The position numbers were made by a program, and so were the translations under genes. Of a stretch of DNA of 44,618 nt, positions 1,977-38,494 are shown one piece after another. Source of the stretch: Pseudonocardiales bacterium (lineage in GTDB: Bacteria > Actinomycetota > Actinomycetes > Mycobacteriales > Pseudonocardiaceae); NCBI GenBank assembly GCA_003244245.1, contig QHBY01000231.1:1-44618 (forward strand), read 5' to 3'. The notes beneath the pieces were generated by a model, which was not told where the DNA came from, did no database searches, and saw only the letters and a list, made by a program, of their open reading frames with translations. Positions within the stretch are counted from its first letter, which is position 1. The number at the start of each line of letters is the position of its first letter.

Positions 1977-2855
1977 CTACGCGATGCGGTTGGACAGCCG
2001 ACCCAGGCCGGTGATCGACACCTCGACGAGGTCCCCGCTGGTTAGGAACTTGGGTGGGTCGAACCCAATTCCGACGCCAGCTGGGGTGCCGGTGGCGATC
2101 AGGTCGCCGGGCAGCAGCGTGATCCCTGCCGACAGGGTGACGATCAGTTCCGGGATGTCGAAGATCAAGTCCTTGACCGGGGCGAACTGGCGGCGTTCGT
2201 CGTTGACAGTGGTCTCGATCTGCAGCGCGGTCACGTCGGTGATCTCGTCGGCGGTCACCGCGTACGGGCCCAACGGGCAGTGCGTGTCCAGCGACTTGCC
2301 CAGCAGCCATTGCTTGTGGTCGCGTTGCAGGTCCCGCGCGGTGACGTCGTTGACGATCGTGTAGCCCCACACGTGCTTGTAAGCATGTTCGCGGGTGATG
2401 CCGCGTCCGCCGCGGCCGATGATCACGCAGAGTTCGCCCTCGTAGTCGAGTTCGCTCGTGACTCCGCGGTGCGGGGCGATGGCGGCGGTAGGTCCGGTGA
2501 CCGATGTCGTGGCCTTGCTGAACAGGATCGGCTTGGCTGGTAGTTGTTTGCACCGGCCCGGGGTGTCGTAGCCGCTGCGGCCGAACTCCGCGACGTGTTC
2601 GCGGTAGTTCTTCCCAACGCAGAAGATGTTCCGCCGCGGCGTGGGAATCGGCGCGAGCAACTCCACCGAGTCCAGCGGCAGCGTCGGCAACGCGACGGTG
2701 CGTTCGCGCAGCGCGGGCCCGAGTTCATCCCAGCCCTCGATCACCTCAAGCAGCCCGGCACCGGACGGGAGCAGCTCGCTGGCATCGCAGACGACACCGG
2801 CGTTGGCGACGCCGACCCGGCTCGTCGTCCCGGTGGAGAAGGTCACCAGCTTCAT
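1977..2855 (-). CDS. fumarylacetoacetate hydrolase (FAH) family protein
   Basis: MKLVTFSTG...NIFCVGKNYREHVAEFG...LDYEGELCVIIG...GYTIVNDVTARDLQ...LPGDLIATGTPAGVGIGFDPPKFL; ATG at 2853-2855. Confidence 0.92.
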   Translation of the reverse strand: MKLVTFSTGTTSRVGVANAGVVCDASELLPSGAGLLEVIEGWDELGPALRERTVALPTLPLDSVELLAPIPTPRRNIFCVGKNYREHVAEFGRSGYDTPGRCKQLPAKPILFSKATTSVTGPTAAIAPHRGVTSELDYEGELCVIIGRGGRGITREHAYKHVWGYTIVNDVTARDLQRDHKQWLLGKSLDTHCPLGPYAVTADEITDVTALQIETTVNDERRQFAPVKDLIFDIPELIVTLSAGITLLPGDLIATGTPAGVGIGFDPPKFLTSGDLVEVSITGLGRLSNRIA

Positions 2856-3116
2856 CGCTGAACCAATCTGACCAATTGAGCCCATATGAACTTCGCCGAC
2901 ACTACGCTGAAGACCCGTCATGCTAATCGACAGGCTGCGGAGACTCTGGTTTGCACAGCCCAAGGGCCATTACATCTTGGTCCACCGGCTGAACGTCCCG
3001 GTGGACGGTCCCCCCGCGGCACACGTTTCTCCTCGACGGGAGGCCCCTGTTTAGCGTCTAGCTGACAGTTGTTCTATCATCACAACCAGACAATCCCCTC
3101 GGCTTAGGAGACCTTC

Positions 3117-3479
3117 ATGGCGCGCAAGGTAGAGACCACACTCGTGGATGACATGACGGGTGACGCCGCTGATGAGACGGTGGCCTTCGGCCTGGATGGC
3201 GTCGAGTTTGAGATCGACCTTTCGGCAAACAGCGCGGGTGTTTTGCGGGATATTCTCGCGGACTACGCGAACGCGGGACGCAAGGTCGGCAAGCGCACCG
3301 CCGTGTCGAACGATCGCTCTCGTCCGTCCGCAACTCCCCGCGGGAATCGTGAGAAGGCCGCTGCGATCCGCGCATGGGCCCGCGAAGCTGGCCGCCAGGT
3401 GTCGGACCGTGGCCGGATCTCCGCTGAGGTAGCGAAGGCGTTCGAGGACGCACACCGTGGACTGGCGGTCGTGGGGTGA
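3117..3479 (+). CDS. lsr2: Lsr2 family nucleoid-associated protein (paralog 1)
   Basis: MARKVETTLVDDMTGDAADETVAFGLDGVEFEIDLS...IRAWAREAGRQVSDRGRISAEVAKAF; Shine-Dalgarno-like aggaga upstream. Confidence 0.93.
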   Translation: MARKVETTLVDDMTGDAADETVAFGLDGVEFEIDLSANSAGVLRDILADYANAGRKVGKRTAVSNDRSRPSATPRGNREKAAAIRAWAREAGRQVSDRGRISAEVAKAFEDAHRGLAVVG

Positions 3480-3934
3480 CGGTCGGGTGCGGCCCGGCGC
3501 GCCTGATCGGTGTTGGATCTCCGCGAGGGGTGTGGACTGGCGCATTTCTCCGCCCCCTCGTCGGTGTAAGCCCGCCTGGGCGGTCGGTGAGCGTGTCGAC
3601 CAATTCGTTGAACTCACCTGGCGGGCGCTGACCAGCGCCGTTCATGCGGCTTTCGACCCTGTAGACGGTCACAGCGGCCGCCGCACCACTTCTACGATCC
3701 GCTGCCCACCGTTGAACACTTCACGCAGGTCGACACCGCCTGAGCCGCAGCGGGTGCCGGTTGAGGATCCCTCACTGGCAACAGCAAACGTCCGCACATG
3801 CCGCTGTCCGCGCGGATGCCGACGCAGGCCTTGCGCAGCGACCCGTAAGGCCGCCCACCGGAACGTCCAACCGGGGTCGAGGGGCGTCGCAGGCTCCGTC
3901 GTCTCACCGAGCCGTCCACATGGTGCTTCGGCGT

Positions 3935-35835: not shown

Positions 35836-36567
35836 ATGTCTGGGACCGCCGAGCCTGCGTCGCTGCCTGGCAGCGCTCGGGTCCTGATGATGAGCACGGT
35901 GGTCATGGCCGCGTCGGCCGCGGCCGTGCTAGCCCTGGGCACTCAGGATGCCCGCCTGCTGAGGCTGGGCGTTGTAGCGGCGCTGTGGGCGGCGCTGCTC
36001 GCAGCCTTCACCACGGCGCGGGCGCGGCGCGAGGTCAGCTCGCGAGCCGAGCACGCCGATCAGTTGCGGGCGGTCTACCAGCTCGAGCTCCAACGCGAGG
36101 TGGTTGCCCGGCGAGAACACGCGCTGGCCGTCGAGCGCGCGCTTCGCGAGCAGGCACAGCTATCGCAGCAGCGTGAGATCGGGCAGTTGCGGGCCGAGCT
36201 TGCGGCCATCGGAGGAAATCTGGCGCAGCTGGCGGCAGCGGCCACCACGTCGACGCCGGCGATCGCTTCGGTGGCTACCCCCGCCGCTATGCCCACCGCT
36301 CGGGGTGGCGCTACCTCCAGGGACAGCCTGGCTGGCCCCGGGTTCCCCGGTCCCGTCCGCCCAGAAGCGCCGAACTCCTATGGTCAGGGCCGCCACGGTG
36401 TTCCAAGCTGGGAACGGTCCGGACCGAACAACAACGGCTCATCCAACAACGGCGGCGGCGCGGCGCAAGCGCAACGGACAGTGCAGGATCTGCTGGCCGC
36501 CCACGGGCCGGCTTCGACCCCCCGGCGCGGGCGCACTCACAAGGACGGCACGGCTGCATCAGCCTGA
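35836..36567 (+). CDS. DUF6779-like protein (two TM segments plus coiled coil)
   Basis: VLMMSTVVMAASAAAVLALGTQDARLLRLGVVAALWAALLAAFTTARARREVSSRAEHADQLRAVYQLELQREVVARREHALAVERALRE. Confidence 0.7.
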   Translation: MSGTAEPASLPGSARVLMMSTVVMAASAAAVLALGTQDARLLRLGVVAALWAALLAAFTTARARREVSSRAEHADQLRAVYQLELQREVVARREHALAVERALREQAQLSQQREIGQLRAELAAIGGNLAQLAAAATTSTPAIASVATPAAMPTARGGATSRDSLAGPGFPGPVRPEAPNSYGQGRHGVPSWERSGPNNNGSSNNGGGAAQAQRTVQDLLAAHGPASTPRRGRTHKDGTAASA

Positions 36568-36585
36568 CCTAGGCTTCGAGGCCAT

Positions 36586-37298
36586 GTTGCGTCCTGGAAG
36601 CTGGACGAAGCCAGCGGGTGGGAGTCCCGCCCGGGTAGTCGTCGGAGAGCCCGGTAGCAGGCCCCGGTTCGTCGTGGAGACGCGGCGGGCTGAGCGGGGC
36701 GTCGAGAGCCTCTTCGGAGGGAGCAAGCACGCGGGCCGTAGCGCTACCAGGCGCGAGTCCGCAGCCTCGTCAAAGTCACAATGGGGGAGCCGAGCCGCTC
36801 ATGTCACGGTGAAGGCCACGTCCGATGGGTTGGCGCTCCGGAGATGCGCCCGTCGGGTCCCTCCGGGGTATGGGGAGCGGCACGTGCGCAGGGTTTCGTC
36901 ACGGAACAGGAGAGACCCGTCTGTGCAGCCTTGTCAGCAAAGACCACCGGTATAAGCCAATGGTGAAATCTGGTGGAGCACAGCGGGAGTCCGACGGGGT
37001 CGTAGTACCGCAGATCGCCGTGAGCAACGCGGCGGGAGGGAAGGGCCCCGACTTCGGTCACGAACGCTTGCTGATCAAGAAGCGCGGTCGCAACCTACGC
37101 GCCGGTCAGGCGGGACGCTGGACCGAATCCTGGTTCCACGACCAGGGACTACACAAACTGCTCGGCACCATCCGATACCCGAAGGCGGCGAAACCATGTC
37201 CAGAAGACCGTCGGTAAGCCGTATGCGGGAAAACCGCACGTACGGATTGAAAGGGGGATGGGGAAACAGAACCGCCGCGCGGCTCCTGCGCCCCTGAC
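36586..37298 (+). mobile_element. group II intron with reverse transcriptase/maturase ORF almost entirely deleted
   Basis: 5' part TTGCGTCCTGGAAGCTGGACGAAGCCAGCGGGTGGGAGTCCCGCC...; IEP N-terminal MVKSGGAQRESDGVVVPQIAVSNAAGGKGPDFGHE joined to C-terminal RGRNLRAGQAGRWTESWFHDQGLHKLLGTIRYPKAA; domain V-like AAGCCGTATGCGGGAAAACCGCACGTACGG (~37216-37245); 3' end CCCCTGAC(TAC). Boundaries +/- ~10 bp. Confidence 0.8.
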
Positions 37299-37303
37299 TA
37301 CCA

Positions 37304-38494
37304 ATGACTGGGTTCGGAGCGGCCGGCCAGAGCTCGCCGGGCATTCGTGCTCATTCCGGGCAGGTGCTGCTGGCTTCGCTGGGCATGGTTGTGCTGGCCG
37401 TCCCCTTTCTTGTCGCGCTCGGCCTCATCAGCACCAATGTTGGTGGTCTTGCTGTGCTGGTCGGCGCGATGGCGGCGGTCCTGCCAGTGTTGCCGGTGGT
37501 GGCGGTCTTCTTGTGGGTGGACCGCTGGGAGCCCGAGCCGCCGCGGCTGCTGCTCGCCGCGTTCCTGTGGGGCGCGGGGATCTCGGTGCTCGGCGCGGCA
37601 ACGGTTAACGACTCCGCGACAGCGTTCGGGGAGCAGGTGCTCGGCGCGGGAGGTGGTGACCTCGTCGGGGCGGTGATTTCCGCCCCGGTCGTCGAGGAGG
37701 CCTTCAAGGGCACGTTCCTGGTCGGTCTGCTGTGGATGCGTCGCCGCGAGTTCGACGGCGTGGTGGACGGCATCGTCTACGCGGGGCTGGTCGCCACCGG
37801 CTTCGCGTTCACCGAGAACGTTCTCTACTTCGGTCGCGCGTTCGCCATCGACGGGCTGGTCGGCGACGGCGGCGGGGTGGCCATCGTGTTCTTGATGCGC
37901 GGCGTGCTCGCCCCATTCGCGCATCCGGTGTTCACCGCGATGACCGGGATCGCCGTGGGGTTGGCGGTTCGCCGCCGCGACCGGACCCGGTGGGCGCTGC
38001 TGCCCTTCCTCGGGTACTTGGCAGCTGTGGGGCTGCACTCGCTGTGGAACGCATCTGCTGGTTTCGGCTTTCTCCCCACCTTTTACGGGGTAATCATGGT
38101 GCCGCTGTTCGGCGGGTTGGTCGCGCTGGTCCTCTGGCAGCGCCGTCGGGAACAACGGGTGATCTCTGCGGCGTTGCCGGGATTCGCCGGCGCGGGATGG
38201 ATCGCCCCCAGCGAGGTCCCGCTGCTGGCCAGCCAGGCCGGTCGGCGGGGATGGTCTGCCGCGGTGTGCCGCCAAGCGGGCGAAGCCGCCGGCGACGCGG
38301 TGCGCGACTACCAGCATGCCGTCACCGAACTCGCTTTCTCGCAAGACCGGAGGTATCCCGGTGCCGACACCGAGCGGTGGCATCAAGAGGCGTTGGATGC
38401 GCTGCTGGCCGCTCGGCAGCGGGCCCAGCGGGTCCCAAACTACCCGCGAGACTACCCGTTGAGTGAAGCTGCTCACCCGGACCGGCGCGAATAG
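37304..38494 (+). CDS. PrsW family intramembrane metalloprotease
   Basis: WVDRWEPEPPRLLLAAFLWGAG...APVVEEAFKGTFLVGLLWMRRREFDGVVDGIVYAGLVATGFAFTENVLYF (EExxK, FxxxE). Confidence 0.93.
   Translation: MTGFGAAGQSSPGIRAHSGQVLLASLGMVVLAVPFLVALGLISTNVGGLAVLVGAMAAVLPVLPVVAVFLWVDRWEPEPPRLLLAAFLWGAGISVLGAATVNDSATAFGEQVLGAGGGDLVGAVISAPVVEEAFKGTFLVGLLWMRRREFDGVVDGIVYAGLVATGFAFTENVLYFGRAFAIDGLVGDGGGVAIVFLMRGVLAPFAHPVFTAMTGIAVGLAVRRRDRTRWALLPFLGYLAAVGLHSLWNASAGFGFLPTFYGVIMVPLFGGLVALVLWQRRREQRVISAALPGFAGAGWIAPSEVPLLASQAGRRGWSAAVCRQAGEAAGDAVRDYQHAVTELAFSQDRRYPGADTERWHQEALDALLAARQRAQRVPNYPRDYPLSEAAHPDRRE

What the first reader, a model, noticed from the sequence alone, without database searches (positions are those of the whole stretch)
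36586..37298. Group II intron that has lost nearly all of its reverse transcriptase but keeps ribozyme ends, between DUF6779 and prsW
Seen: the 5' intron-like region, the typical intron-encoded protein N-terminus (MVKSGGAQRESDGVVVP...GGKGPDFGHE) fused in frame to the typical C-terminal tail (RGRNLRAGQAGRWTESWFHDQGLHKLLGTIRYP), then a domain-V-like hairpin (AAGCCGTATGCGG-GAAA-ACCGCACGTACGG) and a CCCCTGAC(TAC) 3' end. Known: group II introns carry RT/maturase ORFs of about 400-600 aa; here about 95% is gone. Inference: it may be a non-autonomous element that splices with a maturase in trans. It starts about 18 bp after the DUF6779 stop and ends about 5 bp before the prsW ATG, so splicing state would decide the 5'UTR and coupling of prsW.
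Basis: partly seen in the sequence, partly recalled or inferred. Interest (0 to 1): 0.72.

Follow-up and report, generated by a model that had tools for sequence, protein, structure and literature searches.

The report
Group II intron targeting gene start codons
A mobile self-splicing intron that has lost its reverse transcriptase sits exactly at the start codon of a protease gene, and its relatives across Actinomycetota all sit at start codons that carry the mark of a leaderless promoter, many of them in essential genes, which looks like an insertion target not previously described for these elements.

Summary
36587-37306 (720 nt) is a group II intron with domains I-III and V-VI kept. A single 1236-nt in-frame deletion (412 codons) removed the RT from domain IV; the cut is clear against full-length relatives. 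As an RT-deleted intron it is ordinary, like the TeI3 introns of Thermosynechococcus. The intron does not end 5 bp before the prsW ATG: it lies right after the native ATG (36584-36586), and its own conserved 3' end supplies a second ATG (37304-37306) in frame. A same-genus relative has the empty site. Relatives do the same: 32 of 32 distinct 5' junctions end in ATG/GTG, 28 of 32 have TANNNT exactly 6-8 nt before it and at no other spacing (random RTG 0.6%; sister subclass 0 of 9), and 38 of 39 3' junctions end in an ATG that opens a downstream ORF, including metG, serS, coaE, polA (twice), efp and glyA. This is the architecture of leaderless promoters. A 2015 review lists only three target types for bacterial group II introns. 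The recognition mechanism and the splicing state are inferred; the window copy may be a relic (no cognate maturase found).

The parts
36570..36575 (+). TAGGCT, putative -10 element (TANNNT) of a leaderless prsW promoter, 8 nt before the start codon
   Evidence: Sequence; TANNNT at spacing 6-8 in 28 of 32 junctions; empty site L049 has TAGGGT with the same 8-nt spacing. The TSS itself is not measured.
36584..36586 (+). Native prsW start codon ATG, now the 3' end of the 5' exon
   Evidence: Empty site in same-genus G005 (L049): gatgccATGACTGGG; RTG at 32 of 32 5' junctions of the lineage
36587..37306 (+). RT-deleted group II intron, 720 nt (splice register uncertain: start 36585-36587, end 37304-37306)
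   Evidence: Colinear with 1956-nt L137 apart from one deletion; Rfam D1D4-4 and domain V/VI
36612..36746 (+). Ribozyme domain I region, RF02003 group-II-D1D4-4
   Evidence: 87.9 bits, E 4e-18
36763..36869 (+). Further D1-D4 region, partial RF02005 match
   Evidence: 40.5 bits (cut-off 49), E 5.6e-10
36960..37062 (+). Remnant of the N-terminal part of the IEP reading frame (MVKSGGAQRESDGVVVP...)
   Evidence: 58-64% identity to the N termini of L095, L097, L098, L040
37062..37063 (+). Deletion junction in domain IV: 1236 nt (412 codons, in frame) missing relative to L137
37063..37190 (+). Remnant of the IEP C terminus (RLLIKKRGRNLRAGQAG...RYPKAA); former stop at 37191-37193 now AAA
   Evidence: 76% identity to the L095 IEP C terminus; frame read
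37214..37298 (+). Domains V and VI, RF00029 Intron_gpII; AGC triad and GAAA loop present
   Evidence: 37.8 bits (cut-off 40), E 1.1e-5; domain VI covaries across 28 lineage members
37304..37306 (+). ATG at the intron 3' end, start codon of the prsW ORF as it now stands (A intron-borne)
   Evidence: 38 of 39 3' junctions; in G451 and G082 the 5' codon varies A/G while the 3' codon is always ATG
37304..38494 (+). Host gene prsW (PrsW-family protease), intact, 396 aa
   Evidence: PF13367 E 5.9e-57; up to 85% identity to orthologues in the same genus
35836..36567 (+). Upstream gene, DUF6779 protein
   Evidence: PF20570 E 1.3e-20

Best explanation
The element is an RT-deleted copy of a distinct actinobacterial lineage of endonuclease-less group II introns that inserts, in the sense direction, directly behind the start codon of genes whose promoter abuts that codon (leaderless genes: TANNNT, 6-8 nt, C, RTG). 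Shown: the anatomy, the deletion, the empty site, the RTG|intron|...AATG|codon-2 junctions, the -10 signal at a variable spacing of 6-8 nt, and host genes that include essential ones. Inferred: (i) reverse splicing goes into the coding strand where RNA polymerase opens the promoter, because the -10 element lies at a variable distance and cannot be read by a fixed EBS2-IBS2 pairing; (ii) after insertion the host promoter starts transcription at the RTG, so the 5' exon is 1-3 nt, and splicing would rejoin it to codon 2 and regenerate the leaderless mRNA; (iii) because the intron's 3' end supplies an ATG, the ORF also keeps a start codon when unspliced. The window copy kept domains I-III and V-VI but, with no cognate maturase found, it either splices with help in trans or is a stranded relic whose ATG serves prsW.
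For: Intron identity and deletion. Empty site L049. Junction set: 32 distinct 5' junctions, all RTG (21 ATG, 11 GTG); 39 3' junctions, 38 ending in ATG, nearly all opening an ORF of about 100 codons or more. TANNNT in 28 of 32, spacing histogram 6:10, 7:14, 8:4 and zero elsewhere from 0 to 44; control 198 of 31960 random RTG (0.6%) and 29 of 480 long-ORF starts (6%) in the same loci; C before RTG in 91%. Three of the four exceptions look like single departures from the same motif or spacing (my reading). Negative control: sister subclass 0 of 9 RTG, 0 of 9 TANNNT. Leaderless mycobacterial genes have a -10 hexamer, RTG at +1, a preferred -1 C and no Shine-Dalgarno (PMC4633059). Host genes: metG, serS, coaE, polA in two genomes, efp, galU, pyrE, glnE, glyA. 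In G451 the 5' codon is GTG 5 of 5 and the 3' codon ATG 5 of 5, so the A is intron-borne. Domain VI covariation. The lineage's IEP shows RVT_1 and GIIM only, so no endonuclease domain was found.
Against: No transcription start, splicing or protein N terminus was measured. Splicing with a 1-3 nt 5' exon is unusual. The 3' end in the AATG register departs from the AY consensus; the AAT register fits AY but adds a base to the 5' GUGCG. The window D1 has 13 private changes at otherwise invariant columns (others 2-8), which suggests decay. In G082, G451 and G438 the two ends of a copy lie on different contigs, so their 5' and 3' sides are not physically linked; ten copies (window, L095, L137, L098, L097, L242, L247, L096, L142, L250) have both ends in one locus. 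Ten of the 32 junctions came from a pattern that required TG (not R, not the -10).
Confidence: 0.82

Rival explanations
1. The window copy is a dead, non-splicing relic. prsW is translated from the intron-borne ATG on unspliced RNA, and the intron contributes only a start codon and a structured leader.
For: No cognate IEP found in the genome; 13 private changes in conserved D1 columns and 7 broken pairs; much shorter copies that lack most of D1 and all or nearly all of D2-D3 (380 nt in G141, 411 nt in G902, 442 nt in G497) still sit at the start of intact ORFs of 199-285 aa, so unspliced expression seems tolerated.
Against: The window copy keeps D1-D3, DV with its AGC triad and DVI with no net indel relative to L137, unlike the miniature copies; the MAG is about 91% complete and fragmented, so an IEP could be missing. 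It also does not explain where the lineage inserts.
Confidence: 0.5
2. An ORF-less intron spliced and mobilised in trans by another intron's maturase, as in Thermosynechococcus.
For: Same anatomy as the TeI3 introns: DIV ORF deleted, N- and C-terminal remnants kept (PMC2882425); 11 RVT_1 matches in the genome.
Against: The nearest RT found (C498) is about 51% identical and its intron has a different 5' end; this is the only copy of the lineage in the genome, so no sign of proliferation.
Confidence: 0.3
3. The start-codon pattern is survivorship: the intron lands at any CRTG and only insertions at leaderless starts are tolerated.
For: Insertion behind a start codon with a carried ATG would be mild for a leaderless gene; C precedes RTG in 91%.
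Against: No copy was found at an intergenic or antisense CRTG, which should be neutral; the sister subclass is found away from start codons (0 of 9); the -10 is present in 28 of 32 with a strict 6-8 spacing.
Confidence: 0.12
4. The IEP reads TANNNT and RTG directly as a bipartite DNA site, without RNA polymerase.
For: Group II IEPs are known to contact distal 5'-exon bases (general knowledge, not tested here).
Against: The variable 6-8 nt spacing and the full match to the promoter signature including -1 C fit a melted promoter better than a fixed protein footprint.
Confidence: 0.35

Closest known systems
ORF-less TeI3 introns of Thermosynechococcus elongatus (PMC2882425)
   Same: About 1.5-kb deletion in DIV that removes the IEP and leaves N- and C-terminal remnants; ribozyme kept.
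   Different: TeI3 introns are multicopy, mobilised by related IEPs in the same cell, and target other introns, insertion elements or intergenic sites. Here there is a single copy, no cognate IEP was found, and the target is a start codon.
Group IIC (class C) introns
   Same: No endonuclease domain found; insertion tied to a transcription signal more than to a long homing sequence.
   Different: IIC introns insert after terminator hairpins or at attC; this lineage sits at the promoter/start-codon junction, and its 5' end differs from the published class C consensus.
C.te.I1 of Clostridium tetani (PMC3919590)
   Same: ORF-less; annotated start codons of downstream ORFs lie in domain V/VI.
   Different: There splicing removes the annotated start codons and fuses reading frames; here the ATG lies at the intron's very 3' end, in frame with a host gene whose own start codon lies on the other side.
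Azotobacter groEL intron at the stop codon (Michel et al. 2007, cited in PMC4465626)
   Same: An intron placed at a translation signal of a housekeeping gene.
   Different: Stop codon of one gene, not start codons of many unrelated genes, and no promoter signal.
Actinobacterial bacterial-G [g1] introns (PMC8919778)
   Same: Main intron IEP type reported in Actinobacteriota; possibly the same or a neighbouring clade (not tested).
   Different: No start-codon or promoter specificity was found in the passages read.

Membership tests
Group II intron | Domain V with catalytic AGC triad and two-base bulge, followed by domain VI | tested here: met
   RF00029 37.8 bits, E 1.1e-5, just under the 40-bit cut-off; domain VI pairs covary across 28 lineage members
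Group II intron | Domain I-IV ribozyme scaffold | tested here: met
   RF02003 87.9 bits; lineage alignment with 38 of 107 predicted pairs showing compensatory change
Group II intron | Related copies encode an RT/maturase in domain IV | tested here: met
   RVT_1, GIIM and TIGR04416 at 433 bits in L095
Group II intron | 5' GUGYG and 3' AY ends | tested here: inconclusive
   Lineage ends are GTGCG or TTGCG and ...AATG; the exact splice register is not fixed by sequence
Group II intron | Splices in vivo or in vitro | not testable with these tools
   No RNA data
ORF-less group II intron (TeI3-like) | IEP removed from DIV, ribozyme kept | tested here: met
   1236-nt deletion relative to L137 with no other net indel
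ORF-less group II intron (TeI3-like) | Closely related IEP elsewhere in the same genome | tested here: not met
   Closest RT about 51% identity, other subclass; only one lineage copy; the MAG is incomplete
Group IIC intron | Insertion downstream of an intrinsic terminator | tested here: not met
   No terminator-like site in 36400-37400; lineage sites are RTG with a -10
Leaderless gene as target | -10 hexamer 6-8 nt before RTG, C at -1 | tested here: met
   28 of 32 and 91%, compared with the published signature (PMC4633059)
Leaderless gene as target | Transcription starts at the R of RTG | not testable with these tools
   Needs TSS mapping

The most novel reading that the evidence does not exclude
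A phylum-wide lineage of group II introns homes to open promoters of leaderless genes, inserting between codon 1 and codon 2. It uses the host start codon as a 1-3 nt 5' exon and carries its own ATG at the 3' end, so it can live in essential genes whether or not it splices: a fourth target specificity, and possibly one guided by RNA polymerase.
Probability: 0.6. Interest if true: 0.92.

Novelty: new variant of a known kind. Interest (0 to 1): 0.8.

Why it matters
Bacterial group II introns are thought to avoid housekeeping genes, and three target specificities are recognised in a 2015 review (homing sites, terminators, attC; PMC4424553). A lineage that sits at leaderless start codons, including those of aminoacyl-tRNA synthetases and DNA polymerase, would add a fourth, link retrotransposition to transcription initiation, test how short a 5' exon can be, and show a way for an intron to be tolerated in an essential gene by carrying a start codon. 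It would also help start-codon annotation: each insertion marks a likely leaderless gene. The RT-less window copy and the 380-442 nt copies show the lineage decaying in place.

Tried and rejected
Scans of the GTDB contig collection failed (no answer; cap), so copy numbers come from about 1,400 sampled genomes only. I looked by eye for an EBS1 loop pairing with IBS1 (CRTG) in D1 and found no consistent partner; not claimed. A splice register in which the whole 5' RTG is intron was rejected, because in G082 and G451 the 5' purine varies with the target while the 3' codon is always ATG. A leaderless promoter at the intron's own 3' end was considered and rejected: no TANNNT precedes the terminal ATG at 6-8 nt. 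A Shine-Dalgarno role for the conserved AAAGGGGG in the DV-DVI linker was considered; it is also part of domain VI pairing and is left open. Pfam and NCBIfam gave no real hit for the short remnant ORF; identity came from alignment to full-length IEPs. Literature: combined text searches for group II introns with leaderless, start codon or initiation codon found no report of this specificity, but most subscription papers, including Michel et al. 2007 and Simon et al. 2008, are not in the library.

Full report
1. Observation. The stretch given (36586-37298) contains a group II intron. Rfam finds the D1D4-4 domain I model at 36612-36746 with 87.9 bits, a partial second domain model at 36763-36869 and domain V/VI at 37214-37298 with 37.8 bits, E 1.1e-5, slightly below the curated cut-off of 40. 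The two peptide pieces are the N- and C-terminal parts of intron-encoded RTs: they align to full-length relatives at 58-64% and 76% identity, and one such relative (L095) carries RVT_1 and GIIM and scores 433 bits with TIGR04416. Compared with the 1956-nt intron of genome G512 (L137), the window copy is 720 nt and colinear, positions 1-476 and 1713-1956, with one clean 1236-nt deletion and no other net indel. The deletion is in frame (412 codons); the old IEP stop has changed to AAA.

2. As an RT-deleted intron it is ordinary. The ORF-less introns of Thermosynechococcus elongatus arose in the same way, by a deletion in domain IV that left N- and C-terminal remnants (PMC2882425).

3. The boundaries. 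A same-genus genome (G005, L049) carries the empty site: gatgccATGACTGGG, against the window's gaggccATG[intron...CCAATG]ACTGGG. The native prsW start codon is therefore 36584-36586, the intron follows it at once, and the intron's conserved 3' end ...CCCCTGACTACCAATG supplies the ATG (37304-37306) now annotated for prsW.

4. The lineage. Searches of about 1,400 genomes gave 32 distinct genuine 5' junctions and 39 distinct 3' junctions from genomes of several families and classes of Actinomycetota. All 32 5' junctions end in ATG (21) or GTG (11). Of the 3' junctions 38 of 39 end in ATG, and nearly all open an ORF of about 100 codons or more. Host genes include methionine- and serine-tRNA ligases, dephospho-CoA kinase, DNA polymerase I (in two genomes), EF-P, GalU, PyrE, GlnE and serine hydroxymethyltransferase. 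In G451 the 5' codon is GTG in 5 of 5 and the 3' codon ATG in 5 of 5; in G082 the 5' purine varies and the 3' codon is ATG in 7 of 7. So the A of the 3' ATG comes with the intron and the 5' purine comes from the target, which leaves three possible splice registers within 2 nt.

5. The promoter signal. In 28 of 32 junctions TANNNT lies exactly 6 (10), 7 (14) or 8 (4) nt before the RTG, and it occurs at no other spacing from 0 to 44 nt. In the same loci 0.6% of all RTG triplets and 6% of long-ORF starts show this. C precedes the RTG in 91%. This is the published signature of leaderless mycobacterial genes: a -10 hexamer, a preferred -1 cytosine, RTG at +1 and no Shine-Dalgarno (PMC4633059). The sister subclass of introns from the same search, whose 5' end is GTGCGCCCAG, shows neither feature in 9 junctions.

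6. How it may work. Because the -10 lies at a variable distance, a fixed RNA-DNA pairing cannot read it. I infer that the endonuclease-less RNP reverse-splices into the coding strand made single-stranded by RNA polymerase at the promoter. After insertion the host promoter would start transcription 1-3 nt upstream of the intron; splicing would restore the leaderless mRNA, and the intron-borne ATG keeps the ORF translatable in principle if it does not splice. Copies of 380-442 nt that lack most of domain I and all or nearly all of domains II-III still precede intact ORFs (PSP1, thioredoxin-like and DUF1684 proteins), which suggests that unspliced expression can suffice. None of these steps has been measured.

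7. State of the window copy. The catalytic parts are present, but D1 has 13 private changes at columns invariant in ten relatives (others 2-8) and 7 broken pairs (others 0-8). No second copy of the lineage was found in the assembly, and the nearest RT is about 51% identical and from the other subclass. The assembly is about 91% complete in 608 contigs, so absence is not proven. Relic or trans-dependent intron remain open.

8. Novelty. A 2015 review lists three target specificities for bacterial introns: homing sites, terminators and attC (PMC4424553). Text searches of the open library found no start-codon or leaderless-promoter specificity, but key subscription papers are not held. I rate it a new variant of a known kind: a group II intron with an apparently undescribed target.

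9. Limits. Ten of the 32 5' junctions were found with a pattern that required TG before the intron (not the purine and not the -10). In multicopy genomes the two ends of one copy lie on different contigs; ten copies have both ends in one locus. TSS, splicing and protein starts are not measured.

Noticed in passing
L051 (G001:C175), about 2700-3500: In another species of the genus the same DUF6779-prsW gap holds a two-gene cassette that looks like a VapBC-type toxin-antitoxin pair instead of the intron (by eye from the ORFs).
   Followed up: no
L096 (G141), L142 (G497), L250 (G902), L102 (G210): Miniature derivatives of the lineage, about 290-442 nt with different internal deletions; three of them keep both ends exactly at a start codon, and L102's 5' end is more diverged.
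   Followed up: partly
L097 and L098, between domain V and domain VI: Both copies carry a related extra stretch ending ...CGGGGGTCCCCAACACAGATAAGGGGG before domain VI, an unusual insertion in the DV-DVI linker.
   Followed up: no
L040 (G058:C37): A lineage copy with an in-frame RT N terminus is truncated inside the RT next to an integrase/recombinase-like ORF.
   Followed up: no
own genome, 11 RVT_1 matches on 10 contigs: The MAG carries several other group II intron types (Rfam D1D4-1, -2, -3 and -4), most on short contigs.
   Followed up: partly
L266 (G082) and L261 (G451): polA is hit at its start codon in two genomes placed at different distances (same order and same class), which suggests a repeated or conserved target.
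   Followed up: no
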